Assembly: GCA_021822495.1 (NCBI GenBank)
Contig: JAKAQO010000011.1
Span: forward strand, 1-49,861
DNA from: a bacterium
GTDB taxonomy: Bacteria; Elusimicrobiota; Elusimicrobia; UBA1565; UBA9628
Direction: 5' to 3'
Length of the DNA stretch: 49,861 bases
The notes under the pieces: model-generated
The model's database searches: none
The model's input: the letters and a program-made list of their open reading frames with translations, nothing else
Told to the model about the DNA's origin: nothing
Part shown: positions 1 through 47,919 of the stretch, piece by piece
Layout: every line of letters begins with the position of its first letter
Numbering within the stretch: the first letter of the stretch is position 1
Made by a program: the position numbers and the translations under genes

Positions 1-184
1 ACGAAAAATTCGTTTCGGGGACGAGCGCGTTATTAAAGGAATCAACGGGAACAACGTCTACGCTCGCGCGCGGAACGTTCACCGTCTCACTCAAGGTCGC
101 CCAGCAGTTAAGTCCCGGACTCATCAACACAATCGCTAAAGACAAACTCAAGGACATCGTTTTCATCACCGCTTCTTTTTTCAT
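1..184 (-). CDS. Exported protein, paralogue A (5' end only)
   Basis: Only the first 61 codons lie in the window; the gene runs off the left edge. The ATG at 184 (reverse strand) follows a strong GGAGGAG sequence. The product begins with a lysine-rich n-region and a hydrophobic core (SLSLSLAIVLMS) and has a plausible signal peptidase I site after the CWA residues, so export is predicted. DNA and protein are nearly identical to the 5' ends of the genes at 5618-7201 and 1125-3467, which shows recent duplication or gene conversion. Its 5' region differs from that of the two paralogues but carries the same CTAGGCCTTTTGGCCC element (263-278). No known domain can be recognised in what is visible, and the function is unknown. 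Confidence 0.8.
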   Translation of the reverse strand, partial: MKKEAVMKTMSLSLSLAIVLMSPGLNCWATLSETVNVPRASVDVVPVDSFNNALVPETNFS

Positions 185-262
185 CTTGTTTTTCTCCTCC
201 GCTTGAAAGCGAAACGTCTTTAAACTACGCCTATTTAATCACGAATCGCCTTAAGCCCGCAT

Positions 263-278
263 GGGCCAAAAGGCCTAG
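263..278 (-). promoter_or_regulatory. CTAGGCCTTTTGGCCC element, copy E
   Basis: On the reverse strand this reads CTAGGCCTTTTGGCCC, 79 bases upstream of the exported paralogue starting at 184. The GGCC-TTTT-GGCC part can form a 4-bp hairpin. It is followed by ATGCGGGCTTA, a block that also occurs next to copy C. Four related copies are described at 3541-3580, 5489-5527, 7276-7314 and 44826-44852. The role is inferred from position only. Confidence 0.5.
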
Positions 279-291
279 AGGGTTTCCGGCT

Positions 292-1071
292 TCACCGCAT
301 CTTCCGGTAATAGCAACGCGCGTGGTCTTCATTCACGAAATGTTTAACAACCGCGCCGCCGTTGAAATCAGTGAAACGAACCCATTCATCCGTCCAATGA
401 TACCCATCGGAAACGATGTATGATCCCGCTTTAAGCAGCCTGACGCTGTTGCGGACGCTCTTTTTTATCACGTCGCCCGGCATGGGAATGTCTCCGAACT
501 GAAACGTCGCGGAAACTGTTCCGGGAATATTGGTTTCGCTCTTGATAAGGGCCGAATCGCCTGAAAATTCAACCGCGGCGGCGTTGATTCCAAAAGCATT
601 GTCCGCAGCGTACAAAACGCCCGGCTCGCCGTCCTGGCCGGTCAAACGACCCTCGAAGCGGCTCGCGGGATAATGGCCGGACGAATCCAAGCCGGGAAAA
701 GGGTTGTCATCCGGAAGCTCGCATATCCCAGCGAATTTCCCCGTCAAATCATCGGCCGTCGGCTCGACTCCCTGTTGAATGAATTCGCCGATTATATCGT
801 AGAAACTCTCGCGCGGCCATTCCTTCTCGACATTGATAGGAATCGGCAGCTCGGAGCCGTCCAGGCGCGGAACCGCCAAGGGGTCCGTGGCGATTCCGCC
901 GGTCCCCTTTTGCGCGACCCGAACCGCCTTGACGGCCTTGGCTTTCGCGATCGAGATCAGCGATGAGAGATTTTGCGCGCCGGTGCCCTGATCAAAATTA
1001 ATTTCCGCGGCCCATAAAACGCTCGTTTGGCACGTCAAAACGACCGTCAATGACATTAACACCTTTTTCAT
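292..1071 (-). CDS. Exported hypothetical protein (259 aa)
   Basis: Residues 1-21 form a classical signal peptide (MKK, then a hydrophobic stretch, then WAA before the mature start at AEINFD). The mature protein is soluble-looking and rich in Asp, Gly and Pro, with a short cysteine-containing stretch near residue 115 (AGICELPDDN) and another Cys near the C terminus. No known family is recognised. The gene lies 53 bases downstream of the gene at 1125-3467 on the same strand and could be its distal partner in a transcript, while copy E of the CTAGGCCTTTTGGCCC element follows its stop codon. Neighbouring exported genes suggest a cell-envelope or extracellular role, which is inference. Confidence 0.75.
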   Translation of the reverse strand: MKKVLMSLTVVLTCQTSVLWAAEINFDQGTGAQNLSSLISIAKAKAVKAVRVAQKGTGGIATDPLAVPRLDGSELPIPINVEKEWPRESFYDIIGEFIQQGVEPTADDLTGKFAGICELPDDNPFPGLDSSGHYPASRFEGRLTGQDGEPGVLYAADNAFGINAAAVEFSGDSALIKSETNIPGTVSATFQFGDIPMPGDVIKKSVRNSVRLLKAGSYIVSDGYHWTDEWVRFTDFNGGAVVKHFVNEDHARCYYRKMR

Positions 1072-1124
1072 TTCACGACCTCCGTTTTAATACAGCGTTT
1101 AACTTCTTGTTTGTCTTTGAATCA

Positions 1125-3467
1125 TTAATGAATGCGCGACGCAAGCCAGAGCATCAGAAGGACGATTGGTCCAATAGCCGCGTTGGCGGGTCCAAACACG
1201 AGAGCCCAGATCAAACCAGCGACGCCCAGAAGCATTGCATAGCGAAGACCCATGGTCAAGATTCCCTTAATGCCTCCGCTTTCTTTCAAAGCGTCGGCTT
1301 GGGACATGCCGGCTCCAATTCTTGCGCGTATCTTCTCCAATACCTGCGCGATGCCGATAAGACCTCCCACCCCAGCCGCTAGCGCCGCTCTGGAGGCGGT
1401 CGCATGGGCCGCCAGGGCGGGAGCGGCGTGCGCGGCCGTCAAAGTCGCCGCGTAAACGGCCTTGGGAGCGAGAAAAGCCGCCGTTTGAGACATGAAGTGG
1501 GCGATTAAAAGGGGCAACCCAATAAATCCCACAACACCCCCGACAACGGCGCCGATCAGGCCGAAAACAGGAGCGAAAAGCATGATTGCCATTCCCGAGT
1601 CGCCGTCGCCGGTTTTCTTCACAAGCTGATTCGTGTAGAGAAAGGCAACCATGACGCCGACAGCGCCGCCGACAATAGCCCCGATAATTCCTCCGGTCAC
1701 GCCGCTGGCCAAAGTTCCGCCGACGCCCAGGGCCGCGTGAACCGTCGCCGCGAAGGCGGATGCGGGCGCGAACGCCGCCAGGACGGTTCCAATCGCCAGA
1801 CCCGCGATGATTTTTCCTTTATTAGAGGAACCGGAGTTTGGCGTCGCCGCCTTGGGAGCCGAAGCCTCGTTCGCGCCGGCTCCCTGTCTTACCAGCCAGA
1901 TATCGTTGGGTTTGTCTTGCTTGTAAGCGGCTTGGAAAATGCCTTGAGCGATCTGTCCGAGAAGGTCCTCGGTGACGGCGACGGTCTGGAAACCGCCGTT
2001 TTGAAAGACGCGAATTTCGGCCAGCTTGAGTTCCTGAATTTTAGCCACGGCCATCTGCGGCCACATTGTCACGATCATCGAACCTGTCGTTTCGATGGAA
2101 TTGTTCGGCGTCGTTGCCTTGGGAGCCGAAGCCTCGTTTACGCTGGCTCCCTGTTTTACCAGCCAGATATCGTTGGGTTTGTCTTGCTTGTAAGCGGCTT
2201 GGAAAATGCCTTGAGCGATCTGTCCGAGAAGGTCCTCGGTGACGGCGACGGTCTGGAAACCGCCGTTTTGAAAGACGCGAATTTCGGCCAGCTTGAGTTC
2301 CTGAATTTTAGCCACAGCCACCTGCGGCCACATTGTCACGATCATCGAACCTGTCGTTTCGATGGAATTGTTCGGCGTCGTTGCCTTGGGAGCCGAAGCC
2401 TCGCCCGCAATGGATCCTGGAATTTGGTACGCCATCCAGAAAGCGATGTTGTCCTTGATGATTTGTTGCGCCTGCTGACTGTCCAATAAAGGCGTCTCCG
2501 TTTTCTCAAACGTCATATGAGTCAAGCCATACTCGGTATAGAAGGAGCCAGACTCGTTGATAGGGAGATGATACATTTCAAAATTCTTATCCGGCTGGAT
2601 TTCGTTGGAAGAAACCATGGCAAATCCAGATCCGCCTGTTCCCAACTCGCCCTTGTAGAAAAACTTATACGCGCCCGGCTGTCCCGCCAGAATGACATTG
2701 TGATTGGGCGTGGTAGTATTGGTGGTATTCGCCGGAGATGAGGCAAAATCGGCCAGTTGTTTGAACTTGGCCAACTGCTCGGCGGTCAACTTCGTTATGA
2801 CTTGGGAAGGGGACTCCTGCCCAGGCGCGGGAACCGAAGACTCGGCTTTCGAGCCGTTGTCGGCGCCGTTTGCGCTCGATTCCTTTAAATAAAGGTTTTT
2901 CGCCTCGCGAGAGACACGGAGAAATGGCGGAAATTTCGGGATGGAGTTCATTCCATATCCGGCCAGGGCGGGTTGAAGCCTTGATCCATCAAACAAATTC
3001 GACCAGTTCGCGATATGGTTCAACACCGCTTGGTGAAATTTTTGGATCGCCTGGATGCCCCGCGCCGCGTGATGGGCCAAGGTCGCCTTAAGGCCGGAGA
3101 TTTTGTTATTCGTCACGCCGACGCCTGCGGCCTGCTCTGCCTTCGTCACGGCGACAATTTGGACGCCCAAGTCCAGAATCTTGGATTTGCTGGATTCCGG
3201 CTTACGCCGGAATGACGGCCCCTCAGTTTTTTCCAAGGCATCGTTCGCGGAAACACTGAGGAGGTCCTTACTCAAGAAATTCTGCGCGGAGCCTTCGCCG
3301 ATACTTTGCATTTGCGCGTTTAGGCCAGCGGGAACAACGTCTACGCTCGCGCGCGGAACGTTCACCGTCTCACTCAAGGTCGCCCAGCAGTTAAGCCCGG
3401 GACTCATCAACACGATCGCTAAGGACAGACTCAAGGACATCGTTTTCATCACCGCTTCTTTTTTCAT
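1125..3467 (-). CDS. Exported modular membrane-associated protein, paralogue B (780 aa)
   Basis: The start ATG at 3467 follows GGGAG. The order is: signal peptide (1-30), a variable linker, a helical block ending in the residues NLFDGSR (about 130-165) that is shared with the protein at 5618-7201, a central soluble region, an 89-residue unit present twice in tandem (267-bp DNA repeat, 1851-2384), and a C-terminal third of Gly/Ala-rich hydrophobic segments that look like several membrane helices with glycine-zipper spacing. A short palindromic DNA element is inserted in frame at 3191-3218 and encodes FRRKPESS. No enzyme motif was found. A surface or envelope protein is the most that can be inferred. 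Confidence 0.75.
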   Translation of the reverse strand: MKKEAVMKTMSLSLSLAIVLMSPGLNCWATLSETVNVPRASVDVVPAGLNAQMQSIGEGSAQNFLSKDLLSVSANDALEKTEGPSFRRKPESSKSKILDLGVQIVAVTKAEQAAGVGVTNNKISGLKATLAHHAARGIQAIQKFHQAVLNHIANWSNLFDGSRLQPALAGYGMNSIPKFPPFLRVSREAKNLYLKESSANGADNGSKAESSVPAPGQESPSQVITKLTAEQLAKFKQLADFASSPANTTNTTTPNHNVILAGQPGAYKFFYKGELGTGGSGFAMVSSNEIQPDKNFEMYHLPINESGSFYTEYGLTHMTFEKTETPLLDSQQAQQIIKDNIAFWMAYQIPGSIAGEASAPKATTPNNSIETTGSMIVTMWPQVAVAKIQELKLAEIRVFQNGGFQTVAVTEDLLGQIAQGIFQAAYKQDKPNDIWLVKQGASVNEASAPKATTPNNSIETTGSMIVTMWPQMAVAKIQELKLAEIRVFQNGGFQTVAVTEDLLGQIAQGIFQAAYKQDKPNDIWLVRQGAGANEASAPKAATPNSGSSNKGKIIAGLAIGTVLAAFAPASAFAATVHAALGVGGTLASGVTGGIIGAIVGGAVGVMVAFLYTNQLVKKTGDGDSGMAIMLFAPVFGLIGAVVGGVVGFIGLPLLIAHFMSQTAAFLAPKAVYAATLTAAHAAPALAAHATASRAALAAGVGGLIGIAQVLEKIRARIGAGMSQADALKESGGIKGILTMGLRYAMLLGVAGLIWALVFGPANAAIGPIVLLMLWLASRIH
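1851..2403. repeat. 267-bp tandem repeat, two units plus the start of a third
   Basis: The block starting CTTGGGAGCCGAAGCCTCG begins at 1851, 2118 and 2385, exactly 267 bases apart. The first two units are nearly identical over their length; the third continues for about 19 bases and then diverges. Because 267 is 89 codons, the duplication keeps the reading frame of the gene at 1125-3467 and duplicates an 89-residue segment. High identity means the event is recent. Confidence 0.9.
3191..3218. repeat. Dispersed palindromic element inserted in frame
   Basis: The sequence contains ATTCCGGC (3194-3201), a 4-base loop, and GCCGGAAT (3206-3213), followed by GACGG. This pattern matches the short palindromic elements (GTCATTCC...GGAATCCAG type) scattered in many bacterial genomes. 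Here it is translated inside an exported protein as FRRKPESS and is absent from the otherwise similar paralogue at 5618-7201. A related half element lies at 36776-36797. Confidence 0.6.
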
Positions 3468-3540
3468 TTCGTTTTATCTCCCGTCCTGGATTAAAAAATC
3501 TTGGACAAACAGATTCTACCGCCAAGCGTCGGCGCGTGAA

Positions 3541-3580
3541 AAGGGTCTAAAGGCCTAGACGCCGTCTAGGCCTTTTGGCC
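3541..3580 (+). promoter_or_regulatory. CTAGGCCTTTTGGCCC element, copy B
   Basis: AGGCCTAGAC (3551-3560) pairs perfectly with GTCTAGGCCT (3564-3573) around a GCC loop, followed by TTTGGCCC. GGGTCTAA precedes the stem. The element lies between the stop of the metzincin gene (3606) and the start of paralogue B (3467), so it could act in the 5' leader of the latter or as a bidirectional terminator. Compared with copy A, one stem pair has changed from T-A to C-G, preserving pairing. Confidence 0.5.
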
Positions 3581-3605
3581 CCCCGGGAATATCGCAGAAT
3601 TTCGG

Positions 3606-5453
3606 CTATTTGCCCGCGCGGCGGCGCTGAAGTTGGTAGACGGTTTTAAAGTGGCGAGGCAACGCTTCTCCCGTTTGACTGGAGTTCATCAGGCTATTCA
3701 TCGTTACAAGAGCTTCGAGTGAATGTCGGGAAAAATCATAAGTTTCGACGTATTCATCATTCAACCCCAAAATGTGGCCAAATTCATGAGCCGGAACTCC
3801 ATACTCAAAGTTGCGTTCAAGGTAAAAAACCGGGCCGTTGACATGAGAATTAGCGTTGCCGCCATCAAGGAGTTGCAAGACGTTTTCGGCGATCATTTTT
3901 CCAGAGTCAATTGGTTCAAACGAAATATCGGTCTCAATCCGGTAATTTTTGCCGCGATAGGAGAATTCTCCCCGCCAATAATCCTCGATGGAGGCTTTGA
4001 CCGCGCGAAGAACTTCCTCATCCAGGATGTCGGTTAAGAAATGGGCGCGGATGACAAGTTGCCCAGCCCGCTCGACCATGTCGAGCCCCTCATGAAGAGC
4101 CCTAGAACATATCTTTCTCTTCTTTCCTTTGAAAAATCCCTTAAAAATCGTAAAGTCACGAATTCGTGTTACGAACGAATCGTCATACAAGAACGATGAG
4201 CGCACGTAGGAGAATACGTCTTTCAGCTCGCCTTGAATGCGTTCCTTGAATTTCTCGGAAAATGGATGTTGGCCGAGGATTCCGGTTCGAGCGAGAGCTT
4301 TCTGGGCCACGAACGCGGAAACGGCAATCTCTTTAATAGCGTCGGGCATCGCGTAGGACCTTGTTTCCTGTTCTCCCCTTTCCTCCCTTATTTTTTCGCG
4401 TTCCGCCTGAGTCGTCGGAGGAGGAATTTCCCAGGAAGGAATCATCAAGCCGTCTTCACCCGACTCGGCGTGATCCGCGTCTTTCGGAATCAAGGCGTTA
4501 AGAGAAATCAGTTGATTATGGGACTGGCGCTCAAGAAGAAGGGCCTGGACCAAGGAGCCGTCCGCGAGAAGTTTTTCGCTTTCCGCCGCCTGACTTCTAA
4601 AAAAAGCCGGAAGGGATTTATCTTGGGCGGCTTGGGCGAAAAAGCGGGCGTATCTCTTGGCGGCATGGGAGGCGACGGCGGCTCTTTCCCGCGAGGATTT
4701 TTCGGAAAAAACAATTTGTTCCAGATTGTTGTAAATGTACCAGAAAATCCTTCGCGAACTTCCAGGATTTTTTATCAAGGTTTTGGCTAATATCTCCCAG
4801 TCTTTTTTTTTGGACTTATCTTTAAAGACGATTCTCGGTAAAGCCCTCGCCAAATCCGAAGATTTAAGCCCGAACTTAATCCAATCGGCGAGGAAATGAG
4901 ACGTGGCTCGGTTTAAATCCGCCCGAGTAAGGCCTTCCGGGAAACTAGTCGGCGACAAATCGACTTCCGCGTTCTGAGCCCCGCCGTCTTCGGACAAGAC
5001 CTGATCGAAAAATTGTCCTTGAACCATTCTCTCTTCCAAGCTCCCGGATGCGGAATTTTTTATCAAGCGTCCAAGAAATTGCTTGACCTGGGCGATATTT
5101 TTCGCCATCCACCGTTTACGAGCGGAATCAGCCGTTTGGCTCACGGGATTTTCGGGAGACGGGCTAGCGCGAATCAAGGCGGGCGTTTTTTTATCGGGGG
5201 ATAATTGAGGCGCGAGGTTCGCGTCTTGGAGCGGGGCGAGCGGCTCAACACTGGGATTGTCGACTGGAACTTGAAGCTCGTTTAACGAGATTTGATCCGC
5301 GGGGGAGAAATAATCGCTCGCCGGCCTTTCGCCGCCTGGAGTTTCAAGATGGAGCTCAAGGGAAGCGGCCGCCATCGGCGCGGCGGCAAGAATGAACATA
5401 AGGAGAGGCGCAAACGTTTGCCGCCCAAAACCTCGCGACTTTTCCTTGGTCAT
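3606..5453 (-). CDS. Exported zinc metalloprotease, metzincin-like (615 aa)
   Basis: An N-terminal hydrophobic stretch (about residues 15-30, LLMFILAAAPMAAAS) is a probable signal peptide. Residues 31-500 show no recognisable domain and may be a pro-region. Near the C terminus the zinc-binding sequence HEFGHILGLND starts at about residue 556, that is HExxHxxGxxD, followed about 30 residues later by SLMNSS, a plausible Met-turn. HExxHxxGxx(H/D) is the metzincin signature, and Asp as third ligand is known from snapalysin-type (M7) enzymes. The catalytic Glu is present. Upstream lies copy C of the CTAGGCCTTTTGGCCC element. A secreted or periplasmic peptidase is likely; its substrate is unknown. 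The ATG follows AGGGGT closely. Confidence 0.75.
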   Translation of the reverse strand: MTKEKSRGFGRQTFAPLLMFILAAAPMAAASLELHLETPGGERPASDYFSPADQISLNELQVPVDNPSVEPLAPLQDANLAPQLSPDKKTPALIRASPSPENPVSQTADSARKRWMAKNIAQVKQFLGRLIKNSASGSLEERMVQGQFFDQVLSEDGGAQNAEVDLSPTSFPEGLTRADLNRATSHFLADWIKFGLKSSDLARALPRIVFKDKSKKKDWEILAKTLIKNPGSSRRIFWYIYNNLEQIVFSEKSSRERAAVASHAAKRYARFFAQAAQDKSLPAFFRSQAAESEKLLADGSLVQALLLERQSHNQLISLNALIPKDADHAESGEDGLMIPSWEIPPPTTQAEREKIREERGEQETRSYAMPDAIKEIAVSAFVAQKALARTGILGQHPFSEKFKERIQGELKDVFSYVRSSFLYDDSFVTRIRDFTIFKGFFKGKKRKICSRALHEGLDMVERAGQLVIRAHFLTDILDEEVLRAVKASIEDYWRGEFSYRGKNYRIETDISFEPIDSGKMIAENVLQLLDGGNANSHVNGPVFYLERNFEYGVPAHEFGHILGLNDEYVETYDFSRHSLEALVTMNSLMNSSQTGEALPRHFKTVYQLQRRRAGK

Positions 5454-5488
5454 ACCCCTAGTATGCGGGCTTAGGCCTCAAAAAGAAA

Positions 5489-5527
5489 GGGTCTTTGGGC
5501 CCAGGCAGTTTTTAGGCCTTTTGGCCC
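5489..5527 (+). promoter_or_regulatory. CTAGGCCTTTTGGCCC element, copy C
   Basis: GGGTCTTTGGGCCC is followed by TTAGGCCTTTTGGCCC (5512-5527). The block ATGCGGGCTTA precedes it at 5463. It lies upstream of the metzincin gene (start 5453, reverse strand). The long stem of copies A and B is not conserved here, but the GGGTC block and the GGCC-TTTT-GGCCC tail are. Confidence 0.45.
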
Positions 5528-5617
5528 GAGGTGGAGGCCCTCCCGGTTCGAGAGATGGCTGAAAAGGCGCTCAGCTCAAAAATTTTCAGAAATATATATT
5601 TCCGAAAAAATTAAAAT

Positions 5618-7201
5618 CTAAAGAAAAGCGGCGAGAATTGTCGCTCCGAGAATCGCGCCGATAACGCCGCCGATTCCCGCGCCCACGATGGCGCCAAGCG
5701 CGACAGCCAACCCTGCTCCAGCTTCGCTCCCGCTATCGCCTGAGCGAAGGCCTAGAAAAATTCCAATTCCTCCTCCGGCAATTGCTCCAATAAACGCGCC
5801 GATAACCCCGCCTCCAAATGCCTTAAGCGCGGCATGAGCGGAACCCGCGACAACGTGCGCTGCCGCGAGAGTCGCCGCATGAGCTGCGGCCGGCGCGAAC
5901 ATGGCGCCAATGAAAAGCCCGAGAATAGACCCCATCAGCATATTGATGGAGCCGTCTTCCCCTTTGGGAGTCATGGCCGCGCCAATGGCGGCGCCCATGA
6001 TAACTCCAAAGACGGCGAGAGAAGCCATGTGAGAAGCCGCGACCAATAAGACCAGCCAGCCGATGCCGAAGATAAGGCGGTTCGTATCGGAAGACGAAGA
6101 GGACGGAGGGGTCTTCGTTTGAGCCGACGATTGAGGACCTAATTTTTGAAGGGCGATGTTCAAGGCCAAGGCCTGTTTCTGATAATCGTTTGAGAGATTT
6201 TTCCAAGCCGCGATGTCTCCCGCCGAGGATTTATTCGCAACCAAGGCGCTGGCGACTTCTCCGGTCGCCAACGACATATCCTTTAAATCTTGAATCGCCG
6301 TTTGAAGCGCCCCTCTCAGTTTTGAAATCTCCGCTTGAATATCCGGCTCGCGCAAATCTTGCGTTGCGATTTGGTTTATCGCCGGGATAAGGGAAAGGGT
6401 ATCCGCCAGAGCGCTTTGAGCGGTCATTAAAAGTCCGTTTAAAGCTTCCGCGTCCACGCTTGAGGGATTTTTCTTGAGATCGGAAACGACGTTTTGAACG
6501 CTCGCGTAAACGCCCATTTTCTTAATCATGAAACTGATGGTTTGCGCGGAACTTACCGCCGCGTCAATTTGGGTTTTGAGATTTGACGGCGCATTCGGCG
6601 CGGGAACGGCGGCCTCGACCGTTGAGCCATTGTCGACTCCGTTGGCGCTCGCTTCCTCTAGGTAAAGGTTTTTCGCTTCGCGGAGAGAAGATGCGGCTTG
6701 CGGCACATAGCCCGCGTCTCCAGCGAGGGCTAGGGCCGGATGAAAGCGCGAACCGTCGAAGAGATTCGACCAACCCGCAATATGATTCAACACCGCTTGG
6801 TGAAATTTTTGGATCGCCTGGATGCCCCGCGCCGCGTGATGGGCCAAGGTCTCCTTGAAGCCGCGAGCCTGATTTTGAGTGATTCCGCTTGTCGCCACGG
6901 GATTTACGTTTTTGAAAGAACGCTCCGCCGTTTTTTCCGCCTCTATGCCGTCCGTAGCTTTCAATTGGACGGCGTCTTGCGTGACGGTTTCCGCTACGGA
7001 AACGTCCGCGTCCTTGAACGAAAAATTCGTTTCGGGGACGAGCGCGTTATTAAAGGAATCAACGGGAACAACGTCTACGCTCGCGCGCGGAACGTTCACC
7101 GTCTCACTCAAGGTCGCCCAGCAGTTAAGTCCCGGACTCATCAATACAATCGCTAAAGACAAACTCAAGGACATCGTTTTCATCGCCGCTTCTTTTTTCA
7201 T
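5618..7201 (-). CDS. Exported membrane-associated protein, paralogue C (527 aa)
   Basis: The ATG at 7201 is chosen because GGGAG lies 8 bases upstream and because it matches the start of the two paralogues; an upstream in-frame start at 7258 has no such support. The signal peptide (1-30) is almost identical to those of paralogues A and B. The shared helical block ending NLFDGSR lies at about residues 130-165. The middle (about 215-370) is helical and Gln/Leu-rich, and the last 150 residues form four or more Gly/Ala-rich hydrophobic segments that are probably membrane helices. It lacks the 89-residue repeat and the FRRKPESS insertion of paralogue B. Function unknown. Confidence 0.75.
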   Translation of the reverse strand: MKKEAAMKTMSLSLSLAIVLMSPGLNCWATLSETVNVPRASVDVVPVDSFNNALVPETNFSFKDADVSVAETVTQDAVQLKATDGIEAEKTAERSFKNVNPVATSGITQNQARGFKETLAHHAARGIQAIQKFHQAVLNHIAGWSNLFDGSRFHPALALAGDAGYVPQAASSLREAKNLYLEEASANGVDNGSTVEAAVPAPNAPSNLKTQIDAAVSSAQTISFMIKKMGVYASVQNVVSDLKKNPSSVDAEALNGLLMTAQSALADTLSLIPAINQIATQDLREPDIQAEISKLRGALQTAIQDLKDMSLATGEVASALVANKSSAGDIAAWKNLSNDYQKQALALNIALQKLGPQSSAQTKTPPSSSSSDTNRLIFGIGWLVLLVAASHMASLAVFGVIMGAAIGAAMTPKGEDGSINMLMGSILGLFIGAMFAPAAAHAATLAAAHVVAGSAHAALKAFGGGVIGAFIGAIAGGGIGIFLGLRSGDSGSEAGAGLAVALGAIVGAGIGGVIGAILGATILAAFL

Positions 7202-7275
7202 TTCGTTTATCTCCCGTCCTGGCTTGAAAAATCTCGGACAAGCAGATTCTACCGCCAAGTTCCGGCAGGGGAAAA

Positions 7276-7314
7276 GGGTCTAAGGGCCTAGATGCCATCT
7301 AGGCCTTTTGGCCC
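7276..7314 (+). promoter_or_regulatory. CTAGGCCTTTTGGCCC element, copy A
   Basis: GGCCTAGAT (7285-7293) pairs perfectly with ATCTAGGCC (7297-7305) around a GCC loop, followed by TTTTGGCCC; GGGTCTAAG precedes. It lies between the divergent genes starting at 7201 (reverse) and 7390 (forward), so it could serve either. The GGCC-TTTT-GGCC hairpin and the longer stem compete for the same GGCC, which is the architecture of a switch or terminator; this is inference. Confidence 0.5.
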
Positions 7315-7389
7315 TGGTGGGCAAGCTCAATCGAAGGCAAACTGGAAATAGCGTCTTTATTTTTGCTTAATAGTCTGGAGGGCACGCTC

Positions 7390-8409
7390 TTGAACAAGAA
7401 AAATAGCCGTCTGTCTTTACTCTGCGCCGCGACGCTGGCTCTAGCGCCTAGAATTTCATCCGCGCAACAAAGCGCGTTTTTATTTGACCGCGCGAGCGTC
7501 CCCCTCCAAGCCCGTTTAAAACGCTTTAAATTGAGATGGCCCCTTAAAGCGCTTCTTCTTTGGAATGGAAAAGACCGCCGCTTTATCTGCGTCAACCCTC
7601 TCACTCAAAAGGAATTTCATAATCCCGTCAAACTTGACAAGCTAACGCGCACGAAAAAAGGGAACTGCGCTAATTTGTCTTTTGCGCAACTTATGGGAAT
7701 TCCGCTTTATCACGCGCGCCTCGTCGCAGCGAGTCTTGAAAGCTCGGATTTGACCAACGCCAATTTCGCGATGTCTGATTTGAGAAGCGCAAACTTAATT
7801 AAAGCTACATCCCTAGGTGGAACCCTTTTTAACGGAGCCAATCTCAGCGGCGCAAAGTTAGGTTCTGTTTCCTTTCAAAGCCCCAAAATGATTAAAGCCA
7901 TCCTTGAAGGCTCCGACATGACAAACGCTATTCTGCCTGGAGCGGACTTTTCCCAAGCTCTTTTGACCAAAGCTAAATTAGACTCCTCCAACATCGAGGG
8001 CGCGCGCTTTAACGGGGCTGCCATGGAAAATGCGGATCTCACCGGAGTCGACGCCAAGAAAAATTCCAAAACCGAAAAAGCGACGGACTTTTCGGGAGCT
8101 CGAATGGAAAATGTAAAATTTGACGGAGCCAATTTATCCGGGGCTAATTTCTCCGCCGCCAATCTCACCCACGCGTCTTTTCAGGACGCGGATTTAGGCG
8201 AAGCTAATTTCTCCGACGCCAATCTTAAAGGCGCCAATCTCGGCGCTCAAATTCTTTCTTGGGCTCATTTCGACCGCGCCGATTTAAGAGGAGCCAAAAT
8301 CACCGTTCCTTTAACCCAAGCGACGCTGACGGGCGCCATCTATGACTCGACGACCGTCCTTCCTTTTTCCGACGCCGAAGCCCAGAAGCTGGGTATGATT
8401 AAAAAGTAA
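7390..8409 (+). CDS. Exported pentapeptide-repeat protein (339 aa)
   Basis: The start is taken as TTG at 7390 because GGAGG lies 7 bases upstream and this start gives a clean signal peptide (NKKNSRLSLLCAATLALAP, then SSA). From about residue 115 to 320 the protein is built of pentapeptide repeats of A(D/N)LXX type, for example ANLSG, ANFSA, ADLGE, ANLKG, ADLRG, which fold as a right-handed square beta-helix. Most such proteins are cytoplasmic; a signal peptide suggests this one is periplasmic or surface-located. It is divergent from paralogue C, with the CTAGGCCTTTTGGCCC element between them. Partner or ligand unknown. Confidence 0.8.
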   Translation: MNKKNSRLSLLCAATLALAPRISSAQQSAFLFDRASVPLQARLKRFKLRWPLKALLLWNGKDRRFICVNPLTQKEFHNPVKLDKLTRTKKGNCANLSFAQLMGIPLYHARLVAASLESSDLTNANFAMSDLRSANLIKATSLGGTLFNGANLSGAKLGSVSFQSPKMIKAILEGSDMTNAILPGADFSQALLTKAKLDSSNIEGARFNGAAMENADLTGVDAKKNSKTEKATDFSGARMENVKFDGANLSGANFSAANLTHASFQDADLGEANFSDANLKGANLGAQILSWAHFDRADLRGAKITVPLTQATLTGAIYDSTTVLPFSDAEAQKLGMIKK

Positions 8410-8417
8410 CGAGAACC

Positions 8418-9419
8418 TTACAGATTCCGTTTCCAGGCGTGAGGGCGAAGTTCCTCAATCAAAGATTTTTCCAGCGGCTTTGAAGCGGTCAATGCGATGT
8501 TCGATTCAACGTGTTTAACCGTCCGCATTCCCGGAATCACGACCGACACCTCCGGAAAGCTCAAGCAAAACTTAAGCGCGGCCTCCGGCAAGCTTTGGGC
8601 CGCCTTTTTTTCCTTGACCAAAATATTTTCGAGAATTTTCGCGCGGCGAACCGTTTCCTTAAGGAGGCCACCGGCGAAATAATTCGATCGAAAATCCTCC
8701 TCGTCGAATTTTGAGTTTTCGCTTAAAGTTCCGCTCAGCCCCCCCTCGTCCAGCGGCACGCGAACAATGACGCCGACATTTTTCTCCCGGCACAAAGGAA
8801 AAAGTTCCTCCAAGGGCTCTTGCTCGAAAAGATTAAAAACAACCTGAACGGTGTCTACCATTCCCGAGCGAACGATTTCAAGCGCGCTTTTCGGCTCGCG
8901 GGAATTAATCGAAACGCCGAAGAGTTTTATTTTCCCGTGTTTTTTAAGGACCTCGACCGCGCGTAAAGTCTTATTCCACTCGGGTTCCTTGAGCCAGGAA
9001 TCCTGCCAAACGTGTAACTGTTGGATGTCCACGCAATCGGTTTTGAGATTTCGCAAACTTCTTTCGGTGCAGGCAATCAACCAATCAGCCGGAAAGGCTT
9101 CCTTTAAAAGCCCGCGGCTGGGCCAGGAAAAATTCTTGGGCGGGGCCTTGGTCGCGACATAGGCGCGCTTTCCAAATTTCTCAAAGGCCTGGGCGATCAG
9201 GCGCTCGGAATGTCCGTCGCCGTAGACATAGGCCGTGTCGAAAAAATTGCAGCCAAGCTCCAAAGCGCGCAGGAGAGACTTAAGCGACTCTTCATCATCG
9301 GTTTTTCCCCACATGCTTTTTCCAACGCCCCAAGCCCCGTAGCCGATGGGACAAACCTCTAAGTTCGTGCGTCCGAGTTTACGGTAAGACGCGGCTTGAA
9401 CGGCCATTTCTGATTTCAT
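8418..9419 (-). CDS. Aldo/keto reductase (333 aa)
   Basis: This is a TIM-barrel NADPH-dependent aldo/keto reductase. The catalytic tetrad is visible: Asp61 and Tyr66 in FFDTAYVYG, Lys91 in VATKAPP, and His136 in QQLHVW. The C-terminal cofactor region VVIPGMRT also fits. Length is normal for the family. The start overlaps the stop of the PEBP gene (9416-9979) by 4 bases (ATGA), so the two are translationally coupled. The substrate cannot be read from sequence; the family reduces aldehydes and ketones or oxidises sugars. The convergent pentapeptide gene ends 8 bases away. Confidence 0.9.
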   Translation of the reverse strand: MKSEMAVQAASYRKLGRTNLEVCPIGYGAWGVGKSMWGKTDDEESLKSLLRALELGCNFFDTAYVYGDGHSERLIAQAFEKFGKRAYVATKAPPKNFSWPSRGLLKEAFPADWLIACTERSLRNLKTDCVDIQQLHVWQDSWLKEPEWNKTLRAVEVLKKHGKIKLFGVSINSREPKSALEIVRSGMVDTVQVVFNLFEQEPLEELFPLCREKNVGVIVRVPLDEGGLSGTLSENSKFDEEDFRSNYFAGGLLKETVRRAKILENILVKEKKAAQSLPEAALKFCLSFPEVSVVIPGMRTVKHVESNIALTASKPLEKSLIEELRPHAWKRNL

Positions 9420-33850: not shown

Positions 33851-34897
33851 ATGCCTAAAAAAAATTCTTTTTATCACGCGCGAAAGCTCATTGAATTTCT
33901 CAAGGAAAATTCCTCGCGCCTTAAGCCCTTGACGATTTTAACCCATGATCATCCAGACCCGGACGCCCTGGCCTCCGCCTGGGCCTTGTCTCATCTGGCC
34001 CACGAAGTGGCCCACATTCGCGCCAAAATTGTTTACGGCGGAATGATCGGCCGCGCCGAAAACCGCATCATGGCCGAACGCCTTCAAATTCCCGCGTCTC
34101 CTCTCAAACCCGGCGAAATCAAGACGAGCGCGCATTTAGCCATCATCGATACCCAACCGCCGTTTAAAAACAATCGTTGCCCCCCCCGAAGAAAACCCGC
34201 TTTAATTATTGATCATCATCCCCGTCATCCGGATACCCAGGCCGACTGCGTTTTAATTGACGAATCCTCCGGGGCGACGACCACTATTTTAGCCGAAGCC
34301 TTGAGCCTCGCCAAAGTATCCGTCCCCAAGAAACTTGCCACCGCGATTGTCTATGGAATCGGATCTGAAACCCAAAATCTCGGACGGGAAGCCGGCGCGA
34401 GAGACATCAAGGCCTATCAGGAATTTTGGCCCAAAGCCCACATGCAGACTCTCTGGAAAATCTCTTACCCTAAACACTCAACCGATTTTTTTACCTCTCT
34501 TCTTTCGGCTCTTCAAAACGCCTTTATTTGCCGAAATGTCATCGGCACCCATTTGGGAGTTCTTAATGTCCCGGACCGCGCCGCTCAAATCGCGGATTTT
34601 CTCCTCACGCATGAAAAAATGGATTGGTCCATTGTCACGGGAAGGTATCAGGGAAAACTCTTTGTTTCGCTTAGAAGCTCAAGTCCCGCCGCCAAGGCGG
34701 GAAAGCTTTTGAGAAGGCTTTTAGGCGGCGGAAACCGGGGCGGCGGACACGCGATGATCGCGGGCGGCTCCATCGAAGTTGGAGAAGCCGCCTCTCAAAC
34801 AGCCTGGCGGCAAGCGGAAGATAAAATCGTCTCTGATTTTTTAGAAAGCCAAGGCCTTAAAGACGTTTCTCCCAAACTCTCCGCGTTTTATCGGTGA
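33851..34897 (+). CDS. DHH/DHHA1 phosphoesterase (348 aa)
   Basis: The metal-binding motifs are THDHPDPDALAS (residues 31-42), Asp100 in AIIDTQ, DHH at 121-123, and GIGSETQNLG (about 169-178), where the Asp usual in motif IV is Glu173. The DHHA1 domain has GGGNRGGGHAMIAGG. Relatives (NrnA, GdpP, DhhP) hydrolyse c-di-AMP or short RNAs. The gene starts 15 bases after the cyclase stop, so a synthase/hydrolase pair for c-di-AMP is a reasonable inference. No membrane or PAS domain is present. The stop overlaps the next start. Confidence 0.85.
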   Translation: MPKKNSFYHARKLIEFLKENSSRLKPLTILTHDHPDPDALASAWALSHLAHEVAHIRAKIVYGGMIGRAENRIMAERLQIPASPLKPGEIKTSAHLAIIDTQPPFKNNRCPPRRKPALIIDHHPRHPDTQADCVLIDESSGATTTILAEALSLAKVSVPKKLATAIVYGIGSETQNLGREAGARDIKAYQEFWPKAHMQTLWKISYPKHSTDFFTSLLSALQNAFICRNVIGTHLGVLNVPDRAAQIADFLLTHEKMDWSIVTGRYQGKLFVSLRSSSPAAKAGKLLRRLLGGGNRGGGHAMIAGGSIEVGEAASQTAWRQAEDKIVSDFLESQGLKDVSPKLSAFYR

Positions 34898-35556
34898 TGG
34901 ATTTTTTTCTCGCGCGTCTTCCGCTTTTTAAGCGTCTGCCGGAAAAAACTCTGGAGGAATTGCCCCGGAAAGTCTTTCTGCGCCGCTTTGGCAAGGGGCA
35001 AGCGGTCTTTATGGACGGAGAAACCCCGCGCTCAGTTTATCTTTTAAAATCAGGGCTCATTAAGGCCGTCAAATATTCTCTCCGGGAAGAGCCCGTCATC
35101 ATGGAAATTATTTCCCCCGGAGGTCTTTTTGGGATGATCGCGGTTTTAGATCACAAGCCTTATCCCGTCACCGCCCTTTGCATCCGCGACTGCGAGGCCT
35201 ACGAAATTCCAGGAAAGGTCTTTGAGGGACTCCTCAAAACTCATCCTGATTTTTCTCAAGCGGTCTATTCTGAAATCGGAGAACATTTGCGTCAATCCCA
35301 AGCCCTGCGCTCAATCTCAAGAGAACCCGCCTCCCAAAGAATCGCCTTCATCCTGGGCCTTCTCTCCAAAAGCGTGGGCAAAAACCTCTCCATCCGCCGG
35401 GAAGACCTCGCGGAAATGTCGGGCACGACGCAAGAAACCGCCATTCGCATCCTGTCGGATTTCCGGAAAAAGAAATGGATTGCCTCGGGCTGGAAGAAAA
35501 TTACCATCCTTAATCCCGAAAAATTGGAAAAATATTCTTTCTCCGGCAAAATTTAA
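34897..35556 (+). CDS. Crp/Fnr-family transcriptional regulator (219 aa)
   Basis: A cyclic-nucleotide-binding-type beta-barrel (about 10-125, SVYLLKSGLIKAVKYS and GGLFGMIAVLD), a dimerisation helix, and a Crp-type winged helix (about 145-215, SIRREDLAEMSGTTQETAIR). The N-terminal cysteine cluster of FNR is absent, so it is not an oxygen-labile Fe-S sensor of that kind. The start overlaps the DHH stop (TGATG); a GTG one codon earlier is also possible. It stands immediately before two hemerythrin genes, which points to control of an oxygen, nitric-oxide or redox response. Confidence 0.87.
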   Translation: MDFFLARLPLFKRLPEKTLEELPRKVFLRRFGKGQAVFMDGETPRSVYLLKSGLIKAVKYSLREEPVIMEIISPGGLFGMIAVLDHKPYPVTALCIRDCEAYEIPGKVFEGLLKTHPDFSQAVYSEIGEHLRQSQALRSISREPASQRIAFILGLLSKSVGKNLSIRREDLAEMSGTTQETAIRILSDFRKKKWIASGWKKITILNPEKLEKYSFSGKI

Positions 35557-44773: not shown

Positions 44774-44825
44774 CCAAACAAGAGTCCCCTCTTTATTTTT
44801 TCCGACGAATAAGCCGAAAAATATA

Positions 44826-44852
44826 GGTCCTTTGACCCCAAAGCCTCTAGGC
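44826..44852 (+). promoter_or_regulatory. CTAGGCCTTTTGGCCC element, copy D
   Basis: GGTCCTTTGACCCCAAAG is followed by CTAGGCCTTTTGGCCC (44837-44852), 46 bases before the ATG of the FtsH-like gene. CTTTG-ACCC-CAAAG can form a small hairpin in front of the GGCC-TTTT-GGCC hairpin. Confidence 0.5.
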
Positions 44853-44898
44853 CTTTTGGCCCTGTTCGATTTTGAAAAATTATCTTACACTGAAAAAG

Positions 44899-47800
44899 AT
44901 GAAAAAATTAATCGCCCTGTTGATTGCCTCGACTCTCTGCGCGCCCGGCCCTCTTTTTGCCGCCGATTTAGAAACTTCTTTTCATGCCGAGACCTCTCCT
45001 CAGGTTCTCAGCCTTTCTCAATCTCCTCTTATAGAAGCCGCGACTCCGCTATCAAATGAGGAACTTAACCAGATTCATCTTAAAGATGAAAAAACGCTTC
45101 AAACGCAAACCCCGTTAATTCAACAGATAACGCCGAGATTAAATTCGCCCGTGGCGCTCGCGGAGGCAAAGACAAAGACTAAGGCACTTCAAAAAACAAA
45201 AGAACATTTGTCTCAAGTCATCCAATACGCCCAAAAAATGATTTCCGTTCACCGGCAAAAGCTCGCGGGAAATCTCGCGCAATTTTTTGACCATTCCCGG
45301 GGTTTTTCAAACTCCGAAGGATTAACAGGGGCCGCCTCAAGCGCGCCAAACGCAAAAATATCTCTTTCGTTAAAACCTTGGAAAAAAATCGGCCTTGCCG
45401 CGGGCGCCGGCATTTCTTTAACGGGCGTTTCCCGCGCCCTCGCGGCCCCGCTTCAAACTCCGCAAAATGCGCCGGTCCACCATTCCCTGCTGGCTTCTCT
45501 TTTTAGCGCAAGCGGCCTCACCCATCTTGTTCTTACCGCCGCCGCCGTCGCCTTTACCTATTGGGTCTGGAAAAAATTTGGCGGCAATGTTGGGCAAAGG
45601 ATTTCTAGCTGGAAGCTCGCCCGAAGCGCGACCTGGAAAGCCAGCGCCAAAAAGCAAAAAGAAGAAGATGCCCCCGCATCGAGCCTCACCTTCGCTGATG
45701 TCGCGGGGCAAGATAAAGCCGTAGCCGAGGTTCGGAAAATTGTCTCGGCCTTTGAGGCTCCTTCCAAATACAAAAAACTAAACGCCAAGTTTAAGCCGCG
45801 AAACGCTTTCCTTCTAATAGGCCCTCCTGGAACTGGAAAGACTTTGCTCGCCGAAGCCGTCGCGGGAGAGCTTAAACTCGACAAGGACTCTTTTTTCAAG
45901 ACCGACGGGGCTTCTTTCATGAATAAATTTGTCGGAGTCGGCCCCGATGCCGTACACAAATTTTTTGAAAAAGCGCGTGAACAAAGCAAGAAGTCGGGAA
46001 AGCCTTCCGTCATTTTTATTGATGAAATTGACGGATTCGGCAGCCGCGGCGGGAAAAGCGACAGCGGCGCGGATCATGAAAAACAAATGACCATTGACGC
46101 CCTTTTAACCGAAATGAATAAGTTGTCGGGACTGGATTACAACATTATGGTCATCGGGGCCACCAATGAGTTCGGGAAACTCGACAAGGCCCTTAAACGC
46201 TCTGGGCGTTTTGGAACCCATATCGCGCTTGAAAATCCGGATATTCAAGGACGCGAGAGCATTTTGCGGCTTCACTTAAAGGAAGCCCGTCTCTCGCCTG
46301 AGATTGATTTCCCAAAAATCGCGGAGAAAACCACGGGCTTTTCGGGAGCCGATCTCGAGGCTGTCGCGCAAAAAGCGACTGAAATTGCCGTAGATGATGG
46401 CCAAAACGATTTCATTTCTCAAGCCGATCTTGAAAAAGCGGTTGAAAGCATAAAAGAAAACATCAACCAAAAATCCAGAGCCGTTGACAGCTCAAACGAT
46501 TCCTCCGCTATTTCCGTTCAATTCGAGGATCCGGAAACGATCACGACAGGCTTTGCCCAAGTGGCCGGTCAGGATGAAGCCAAGGCTGAAGTGACGGAAC
46601 TGGTCGATCAAATCAAAAACCGTTCGCGCTACCTTGAGATAAACCCGCAATTTCGCCCGCTCCGGGGAGCGCTTTTATTCGGGCCCCCGGGAACGGGAAA
46701 AACCTTGATGGCCCGGGCCATCGCCAAAGAATCCGGAGCCCTTTTCTTCAAAGTGGACGGCACGGACTTCCTTAAAAAGTTCGTGGGGGAAGGCCCGCAA
46801 GCGGTGCGGGACCTTTTTGACACCGCTTCCTACGAATCAAAAAGAGAGAAAAAACCGGCCATCATCTTTATCGATGAAATCGACGCTATCGCCCGCGCCC
46901 GGGGCTCGGACTTAAACGGAAGCGGAGACGCCTTGGTCAACCAGCTTCTGACCGCCATTGACGGATTTAAAACCGAAAACAACGTAACCGTCATCGGCGC
47001 GACTAACAAACCGGAATCCCTGGACCCTGCTTTAACGCGCGGCGGACGGCTTGAACTTCAAATTCCCGTCGGGCTTCCTGATGTTTTAGGGCGGGAAGAA
47101 ATTCTCAAAGTCCACGCCCAAGGGATTGCGATGGACTCCACCGTCAATCTCAGGGAAATCGCCCGGCAGACGGCGGGGTTTTCCGGAGCGGACATGGAAA
47201 GCCTGGTCATGAAGGCAACTTCCGCGTCCATCAAACGCGGAGCCTCCACTCTTTCCCAAACGGATTTTATTTCTTCTATTGACCGCGTCCAGTTGGGAAT
47301 GGAAAGAAAACTCGTCATGCCGGAAGACGAAAAAGAAGTCGTCGCCTATCATGAGGCCGGGCACGCGCTGGTTTCTCATCTTTTGCCGGACGCCGATCCC
47401 ATTCGCAAGGTGACGATTGTCCCCCATGGTCTCAACGCCCTGGGTCTCATGCAGGCCGTCCCTGACGTCGAGAGAAATATTCAAAGCCGCTCGTACTTAG
47501 TCGCCCGAATGGCCGTCGCCTTGGGCGGACGCGCGGGAGAAGAACTTTTAAACGAGAGAATTCACGGCAAGAAAGAAAATTTCTCCGGCGCCGCCAATGA
47601 CCTTGAAAAAGCGACTGAAATTGCCCGCTACATGGTCATGAAATTCGGGATGTCCGAAAAAATCGGCCTGGTCAGCTACGGCTTTGAAAACGACCGGCAA
47701 AATCAGAAACCGCTTAGCGAAGAAACCACCAAAGCTATCGAAGCCGAGGTCAAGACTCTCATCCAAGAAGCCTATCAGACGGCGAGAACCACCCTTCAAA

Positions 47801-47919
47801 ACAACTGGGAAGTTTTCAAAGCCGCGGCGGAAGAGTTGCGGACGAAAGAAACCCTCCGAGGAGAGGATTTCGACCGTCTAATTCCGAAAGCCCAGAACCC
47901 TAAGAGCTCGCAACAATAA
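44899..47919 (+). CDS. Exported or membrane-anchored FtsH-like protease with two AAA+ domains (1006 aa)
   Basis: Order: a signal-peptide-like segment (1-21, ending FAAD), a helical linker with a sequence ending FFDHSR (about 100-135), a hydrophobic segment (about 155-180), a membrane helix (about 205-225), AAA+ domain 1 (Walker A GPPGTGKT 308-315, Walker B VIFIDE 371-376), AAA+ domain 2 (Walker A 595-602, Walker B 655-660) and an M41 peptidase domain with HEAGH at 818-822 and the third ligand Asp901 in SGAANDLEKAT. FtsH normally has one AAA+ domain and about 650 residues. Both domains keep FVG pore loops and arginine fingers. Start ATG 44899; a TTG at 44872 is possible. Confidence 0.85.
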   Translation: MKKLIALLIASTLCAPGPLFAADLETSFHAETSPQVLSLSQSPLIEAATPLSNEELNQIHLKDEKTLQTQTPLIQQITPRLNSPVALAEAKTKTKALQKTKEHLSQVIQYAQKMISVHRQKLAGNLAQFFDHSRGFSNSEGLTGAASSAPNAKISLSLKPWKKIGLAAGAGISLTGVSRALAAPLQTPQNAPVHHSLLASLFSASGLTHLVLTAAAVAFTYWVWKKFGGNVGQRISSWKLARSATWKASAKKQKEEDAPASSLTFADVAGQDKAVAEVRKIVSAFEAPSKYKKLNAKFKPRNAFLLIGPPGTGKTLLAEAVAGELKLDKDSFFKTDGASFMNKFVGVGPDAVHKFFEKAREQSKKSGKPSVIFIDEIDGFGSRGGKSDSGADHEKQMTIDALLTEMNKLSGLDYNIMVIGATNEFGKLDKALKRSGRFGTHIALENPDIQGRESILRLHLKEARLSPEIDFPKIAEKTTGFSGADLEAVAQKATEIAVDDGQNDFISQADLEKAVESIKENINQKSRAVDSSNDSSAISVQFEDPETITTGFAQVAGQDEAKAEVTELVDQIKNRSRYLEINPQFRPLRGALLFGPPGTGKTLMARAIAKESGALFFKVDGTDFLKKFVGEGPQAVRDLFDTASYESKREKKPAIIFIDEIDAIARARGSDLNGSGDALVNQLLTAIDGFKTENNVTVIGATNKPESLDPALTRGGRLELQIPVGLPDVLGREEILKVHAQGIAMDSTVNLREIARQTAGFSGADMESLVMKATSASIKRGASTLSQTDFISSIDRVQLGMERKLVMPEDEKEVVAYHEAGHALVSHLLPDADPIRKVTIVPHGLNALGLMQAVPDVERNIQSRSYLVARMAVALGGRAGEELLNERIHGKKENFSGAANDLEKATEIARYMVMKFGMSEKIGLVSYGFENDRQNQKPLSEETTKAIEAEVKTLIQEAYQTARTTLQNNWEVFKAAAEELRTKETLRGEDFDRLIPKAQNPKSSQQ

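What the first reader, a model, noticed from the sequence alone, without database searches (positions are those of the whole stretch)
7276..7314. A five-copy CTAGGCCTTTTGGCCC element marks exported-protein genes
Copies at 263-278 (reverse), 3541-3580, 5489-5527, 7276-7314 and 44826-44852 share CTAGGCCTTTTGGCCC, usually with GGGTC(T/C) ahead of it. Each lies immediately 5' of a gene whose product has a signal peptide. By eye I found none beside the other genes between 8.4 and 44.8 kb. Copies A and B form 9-10 bp stems with a GCC loop, and one stem pair differs compensatorily (T-A versus C-G), which suggests selection on RNA or DNA structure, although A and B could share duplication history. The long stem and the GGCC-TTTT-GGCC hairpin compete, as in a switch. 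It could be a regulon marker, a terminator or a new cis-RNA.
Basis: partly seen in the sequence, partly recalled or inferred. Interest (0 to 1): 0.72.

Follow-up and report, generated by a model that had tools for sequence, protein, structure and literature searches.

The report
Class-wide promoter switch for exported proteins
The repeated DNA motif is a docking site just upstream of the promoters of genes for exported proteins, found across one class of little-studied bacteria (Elusimicrobia) and probably read by a single conserved two-component response regulator; it is not an RNA element or a terminator.

Summary
The motif is one box of a tandem DNA operator: a TAGGNC-N4-GNCCYA inverted repeat ending 23-24 bp upstream of a -10 hexamer, usually with a second box about 23-25 bp further upstream. 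The window's genome carries about 50 sites; 40 lie in an unbiased 710 kb sample, far above controls. Most lead into signal-peptide genes. At 18 of 45 sites an ATG lies 11-14 nt after the -10 (leaderless), so the element is upstream of the transcript; this and the lack of covariation argue against a cis-RNA, and its position against a terminator. The element occurs in at least 153 of 295 phylum genomes searched, including gut Elusimicrobiaceae, and in 0 of 15 from other phyla. Outside this genome 59 of 70 downstream genes have signal peptides, against 61 of 203 neighbours. The likely reader is a conserved NarL/FixJ response regulator with the DNA-contact residues of M. tuberculosis DosR, whose published site resembles the box. 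It is present in all 26 element-bearing genomes tested and missing or diverged in 7 of 10 without detected elements. CRP/FNR is excluded as the class-wide binder. Binding and activation are inferred, not shown.

The parts
263..277 (-). Operator box (TAGGCCTTTTGGCCC) of the truncated signal-peptide gene at the window edge; no clear second box
   Evidence: Exact match; score 32.7, -10 at 24 bp
233..238 (-). -10 hexamer TTAAAT
   Evidence: 24 bp after the box
1..184 (-). Start of an exported-protein gene (MKKEAVMKTMSLSLSLAIVLMSPGLN...), cut by the window edge; paralogue of 1125-3467 and 5618-7258
   Evidence: Read from the sequence
3543..3581 (-). Dyad operator: proximal box 3543-3557 (minus), upstream box 3567-3581 (plus)
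3513..3518 (-). -10 hexamer TAGAAT
   Evidence: 24 bp after the box
1125..3467 (-). Target gene, 780 aa, signal peptide
5489..5527 (-). Dyad operator: proximal box 5489-5503 (minus), upstream box 5513-5527 (plus)
5460..5465 (-). -10 hexamer CATACT; ATG 12 nt downstream (leaderless)
3606..5453 (-). Target gene, 615 aa from the ATG at 5453, signal peptide, weak metalloprotease similarity
7276..7314 (.). Dyad operator between divergent genes: box 7276-7290 (minus) and box 7300-7314 (plus)
7246..7251 (-). -10 hexamer TAGAAT
   Evidence: 24 bp after the minus box
7338..7343 (+). Weak -10 candidate CAAACT
   Evidence: 23 bp after the plus box, low score
5618..7258 (-). Target gene (527 aa if started at 7201), signal peptide
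7363..8409 (+). Target gene, pentapeptide-repeat protein; signal peptide from an internal start near 7390
44824..44862 (+). Head-to-tail operator: box1 from 44824, box2 44848-44862
   Evidence: Score 49.3; same layout in G002 (L052)
44886..44891 (+). -10 hexamer TACACT; ATG 13 nt downstream (leaderless)
44899..47919 (+). Target gene, 1006 aa, signal peptide, AAA domains and M41 (FtsH-type) peptidase

Best explanation
The element is a DNA operator, not an RNA. Two inverted-repeat boxes (TAGGNCY-TT-NGNCCYA, presumably one protein dimer each) lie about 23-25 bp apart. The promoter-proximal box is centred about 30-31 bp upstream of the -10, that is near -42, where it overlaps or replaces the -35. 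A conserved NarL/FixJ-type response regulator, often encoded directly after a REC-HisKA-HATPase kinase, probably binds both boxes when phosphorylated and recruits sigma-70 RNA polymerase from the proximal box, as DosR/DevR does. The effect would be coordinated switching of a large set of exported-protein genes across the class Elusimicrobia. Shown by sequence: operator architecture and fixed spacing, leaderless starts, the genome-wide and class-wide link to signal-peptide genes, and co-occurrence with the regulator. Inferred: that this regulator binds, that it activates rather than represses, that phosphorylation is needed, and what the signal is.
For: 40 sites score above 26 in an unbiased 710 kb sample, next 14.9, controls at most 16.0; -10 at 23 bp (23 sites) or 24 bp (8) of 49 box-defined sites against about 1 per other position. 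ATG 11-14 nt after the -10 in 18 of 45 sites. Signal peptides downstream: 26/33 against 162/604, elsewhere 59/70 against 61/203. Element in at least 153 of 295 phylum genomes, 0 of 15 other-phylum genomes. Orthologous NarL-type regulator with helix KT[VI]KNHLN in 26 of 26 element-bearing genomes, absent or changed in 7 of 10 element-less ones, p=1.4e-5 ignoring phylogeny. K179, K182, N183 of DosR, its core DNA-binding residues (PMC5999986), are all conserved. The DosR EMSA oligo in that paper scores in the top 2.5e-5 of random 16-mers with the box matrix. DosR promoters also use paired boxes with the proximal one over the -35, also at a divergent promoter pair (PMC3029386, PMC5360333).
Against: No binding or expression data. 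G116, G252 and G144 have the regulator but no detected element. The KTVKN helix motif is not unique: DegU has it and binds another sequence (from memory). The DosR oligo scores below the weakest own site (8.1 against 12.6). No box was found beside the regulator genes. Co-occurrence is not corrected for phylogeny, and three element-bearing genomes (G099, G200, G254) rest on weak hits (E 0.002-0.006). Activation rather than repression is inferred from position only.
Confidence: 0.7

Rival explanations
1. The operator is real and positioned like an activator site, but a different class-wide transcription factor, not tested here, reads it.
For: Operator evidence as above; only two regulator families were tested for co-occurrence; three genomes have the NarL-type regulator without elements.
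Against: Co-occurrence with the NarL-type regulator, conserved contact residues and a DosR-like site point to it.
Confidence: 0.22
2. A CRP/FNR-family protein binds the 5-N4-5 palindrome at a class II position.
For: Half-site geometry and position fit; three such genes are conserved in the genus, one of them in this window at 34897-35556.
Against: No HTH_Crp_2 match in G105 (31 elements at E<=0.01), G128 or G147, and only sub-threshold matches in G124, G156, G232 and G315.
Confidence: 0.03
3. Structured leader RNA or riboswitch-like switch with competing hairpins.
For: Perfect stems in dyad copies at 3543-3581 and 7276-7314.
Against: Upstream of a fixed -10, many leaderless genes, no covariation and a broken pair, no Rfam match. 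Where a real leader RNA exists (2dG-II aptamer in L209 and L308) it lies downstream of the element.
Confidence: 0.02
4. Intrinsic terminator, or a scattered REP-like or DNA-uptake repeat without a regulatory role.
For: Palindromic, multicopy, intergenic.
Against: No T run; none of the 12 terminator-like sites in 1-9000 is at the element. Sites are 5' of genes, phased to a -10 and strongly biased to one gene class. Only about 50 copies per genome.
Confidence: 0.02

Closest known systems
DosR/DevR boxes and DosR-activated promoters of Mycobacterium tuberculosis
   Same: GG-N-C...G-N-CC inverted repeat close to the EMSA oligo TTAGGGACTTTAGTCCCCAA (PMC5999986); proximal box over the -35, two or more boxes, shared divergent operator (PMC3029386, PMC5360333); NarL-type regulator with K179/K182/N183 conserved.
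   Different: Half-site is TAGGNC rather than (T)GGGAC; regulon is exported proteins, not hypoxia or dormancy genes; the kinase found next to it has an N-terminal receiver domain; different phylum; no binding shown.
VraR/LiaR-type NarL/FixJ response regulators
   Same: Closest solved structures by sequence (VraR 5hev E=2e-39, 4gvp E=2e-36; DevR 3c3w E=1e-32).
   Different: Known role in cell-envelope stress of Firmicutes (from memory); their operator was not compared here.
DegS-DegU of Bacillus subtilis
   Same: NarL/FixJ system that controls exported enzymes; shares the KTVKNH helix motif (from memory).
   Different: DegU binds a different sequence (from memory).
CRP/FNR class II promoters
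   Same: Palindrome near -42 replacing the -35.
   Different: The protein family is missing from element-rich genomes.

Membership tests
NarL/FixJ-activated class II promoter (DosR-like architecture) | Inverted-repeat box of 16-20 bp | tested here: met
   TAGGNCYTTNGNCCYA, invariant GG, C, G, CC
NarL/FixJ-activated class II promoter (DosR-like architecture) | Proximal box overlapping or abutting the -35 at a fixed distance from the -10 | tested here: met
   23-24 bp from GGCCC to the -10 in 31 of 49 sites
NarL/FixJ-activated class II promoter (DosR-like architecture) | Two or more boxes per promoter | tested here: met
   Most sites; the 263-277 copy is an exception
NarL/FixJ-activated class II promoter (DosR-like architecture) | NarL-type regulator with the DosR contact residues in the same genomes | tested here: met
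   26 of 26 element-bearing genomes; receiver and GerE domains
NarL/FixJ-activated class II promoter (DosR-like architecture) | Element only where the regulator is; regulator always with element | tested here: inconclusive
   No element without the regulator, but G116, G252, G144 have the regulator and no detected element
NarL/FixJ-activated class II promoter (DosR-like architecture) | Phosphorylation-dependent binding and activation | not testable with these tools
   Needs protein and transcription assays
DosR regulon proper | Hypoxia and dormancy gene set | tested here: not met
   Targets are exported peptidases, hydrolases and unknown proteins
CRP/FNR regulon | CRP-type HTH protein in element-bearing genomes | tested here: not met
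   None in G105, G128, G147
Cis-regulatory RNA | Element inside the transcript | tested here: not met
   Upstream of the -10; leaderless starts; inferred from sequence, no RNA-seq
Cis-regulatory RNA | Conserved pairing with covariation | tested here: not met
   0 pairs with change on both sides; one pair broken in 11 of 26
Intrinsic terminator | Stem followed by a T run at gene ends | tested here: not met
   No hit at the element; located 5' of genes

The most novel reading that the evidence does not exclude
The regulon is a dedicated programme for proteins acting outside the cell, possibly inside another cell, switched by one two-component system throughout the class. The set includes ATP-dependent machines (FtsH-like AAA-M41 and ClpB-like AAA proteins), a kinase-like protein, a LOG-family enzyme, and ankyrin and pentapeptide proteins, all with apparent signal peptides. 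ATP-dependent enzymes are hard to explain in an ATP-free periplasm, which would suggest delivery into a partner or prey cell.
Probability: 0.15. Interest if true: 0.85.

Novelty: new member of a known kind. Interest (0 to 1): 0.64.

Why it matters
No earlier description of this element turned up in the literature searched. One operator would define an exported-protein programme for a whole class of mostly uncultured bacteria, and it predicts which unknown proteins belong together. It also suggests that a DosR-like recognition code is used far outside the actinobacteria for a different set of genes. The presence of the element in a 1.64 Mb single-contig gut genome that may be the cultured Elusimicrobium minutum makes it testable.

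Tried and rejected
Rfam on the window: only a tRNA. RNA hairpin and covariation on 26 aligned sites: no support. CRP/FNR as binder: proposed from geometry and three such genes, one in the window, rejected by its absence from element-rich gut genomes. ArsR-family gene at C4:218666 next to a divergent site: its own direction has a degraded box and a weak -10. Receiver-only response regulator as binder: no DNA-binding domain, so only a regulon member. Autoregulation of the NarL-type gene: no strict box nearby. Literature on an Elusimicrobia promoter motif: nothing found.

Full report
Observation. The window is contig C10 of a 2.2 Mb genome. Its YchF protein is 92-93% identical to those of three unnamed MAGs (JA2.bin36, LSA5.bin12, YF2.bin97) and at most 75% identical to those of named Elusimicrobia MAGs.

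Anatomy. Lining up hits showed a pattern that needs many copies to see. In most sites box1, about TAGGTCYTTTGCCGGA, starts about 23 bp upstream of box2, TAGGNCYTTTNGRCCC. Box2 ends 23 or 24 bp before a TAnnnT -10 hexamer. A matrix for box1, box2 and -10 separates cleanly: in an unbiased 710 kb sample 40 sites score above 26, the next is 14.9, the reversed control reaches 10.8 and five Markov controls reach 16.0. When sites are chosen by the two boxes alone, a -10 (at least 4 of 6 of TATAAT) sits at 23 bp in 23 sites and at 24 bp in 8 of 49, against about one per other position. The matrices were trained together, so this is not fully independent, but the pattern was first seen in hits chosen without any -10. 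A minority of copies, including those at 3543-3581 and 7276-7314, have the upstream box inverted. At 7276-7314 there is a signal-peptide gene on each side, although the -10 on the + side is weak.

DNA, not RNA. With the -10 downstream, the element lies upstream of the transcript. In 18 of 45 sites an ATG opening a frame of at least 80 codons lies 11-14 nt after the first -10 base, 14 of them at exactly 12 nt, meaning the message is probably leaderless. In two relatives (L209, L308) a 2dG-II riboswitch aptamer starts downstream of the element. The GGCC-TTTT-GGCC hairpin shows no compensatory change and one pair is broken in 11 of 26 copies. No terminator-like hit overlaps the element. Transcript ends themselves were not measured.

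Exported proteins. In the unbiased sample 26 of 33 element-driven genes pass a signal-peptide rule against 162 of 604 others (odds ratio 10, p=2e-9). Several of the seven misses also look like signal peptides by eye. The reverse is not true: most signal-peptide genes have no element. Pfam hits among targets are M1, M3, M41, M48, C1-like and trypsin peptidases, GH15, a transglycosylase, LOG, ankyrin and pentapeptide proteins, and AAA+ proteins; many have no family. In loci from other genomes 59 of 70 downstream genes pass against 61 of 203 other genes in the same loci (p=2e-15); 27 further matches had no gene in range. The signal-peptide rule is home-made and is applied to targets and controls alike, except that target starts were restricted to those after the -10.

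Distribution. A sequence-only model (R1) finds 39-52 sites in each of the five genus members, 43 in G020, 21 in G006 and fewer in the others (E<=0.01; G020 has 22 at E<=0.001). Among 49 genomes reached through named contigs it hits 20 of 34 Elusimicrobia and 0 of 15 from other phyla. A second model (R2), built from diverse sites, hits 153 of 295 phylum genomes, a lower bound because only 17 candidates per genome were scored; every listed hit is in the same class or closer. It includes small gut genomes of family f7, where sites again lead mostly into signal-peptide genes. One of these, G120, is a single contig of 1,643,562 bases with 15 sites; from memory this is the size of the cultured Elusimicrobium minutum Pei191, which was not verified.

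Regulator. CRP/FNR was my first candidate but is missing from element-rich gut genomes. The 16-bp box can be read as two heptamers facing each other across 2 bp, as in NarL-family sites, and it resembles the DosR site. A GerE (NarL/FixJ) search found candidates in all element-bearing genomes tested and none in G037 and G181, which have no elements. Extraction showed one orthologous response regulator with helix KT[VI]KNHLN in 26 of 26 element-bearing genomes. Of ten class members without detected elements, G037 and G181 lack the family, G118, G202 and G245 have only unlike members, G205 and G153 have the K179 position changed (to N and R), and G116, G252 and G144 keep the full helix. Ignoring phylogeny, p=1.4e-5. 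In eight of the genomes examined (G020, G035, G105, G120, G128, G252, G276, G333) a histidine-kinase gene lies just before it; the two scanned with Pfam are REC-HisKA-HATPase kinases. K179, K182 and N183 are DosR's core DNA-binding residues (PMC5999986) and are conserved. The DosR EMSA oligo from the same paper scores in the top 2.5e-5 of random 16-mers with the box matrix, though below the lowest own site (8.1 against 12.6). DosR promoters have paired boxes with the proximal one over the -35, and a divergent pair sharing two sites (PMC3029386, PMC5360333). DegU shares the helix motif but has another site (from memory), so the helix is supporting, not decisive.

Verdict. What is shown is a class-wide operator with fixed promoter geometry and a strong exported-protein link. 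That a DosR-like NarL/FixJ regulator reads it and activates is the best-supported inference, at about 0.7.

Noticed in passing
window 44899-47919; L108:9870-12488: FtsH-like (two AAA domains plus M41) and ClpB-like AAA+ proteins that start with apparent cleavable signal peptides and a long N-terminal extension; unusual for ATP-dependent machines.
   Followed up: partly
L102:10106-10627 (G000 C6), L202/L355 (G035), L452 (G276): A receiver-only response regulator without signal peptide sits under the element in three families; possibly feedback on the controlling phosphorelay.
   Followed up: partly
L209:1562-1632, L308:1581-1651: 2dG-II riboswitch aptamers (RF03165) begin downstream of the element's promoter in two genera.
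   Followed up: partly
window 1-184, 1125-3467, 5618-7258: Three paralogous exported proteins (MKKEA.MKTMSLSLSLAIVLMSPGLN...); 1125-3467 contains an internal tandem duplication near 1850-2400.
   Followed up: no
L321 (UBA1174), site at 1501: In this gut genome the element's promoter seems to drive a short transcript ending in a strong terminator-like hairpin, possibly a small RNA; no Rfam match.
   Followed up: no
window 34897-35556: A CRP/FNR-family regulator gene, conserved in the genus, followed by two hemerythrin-like proteins judged by eye.
   Followed up: partly
L480 (G120 ruvA), L485 (rdgB-like), L488 (rpmE-like), L361 (pyrB-like): A few element copies in gut genomes precede cytoplasmic housekeeping genes (named by eye), so the exported-protein rule has exceptions.
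   Followed up: no
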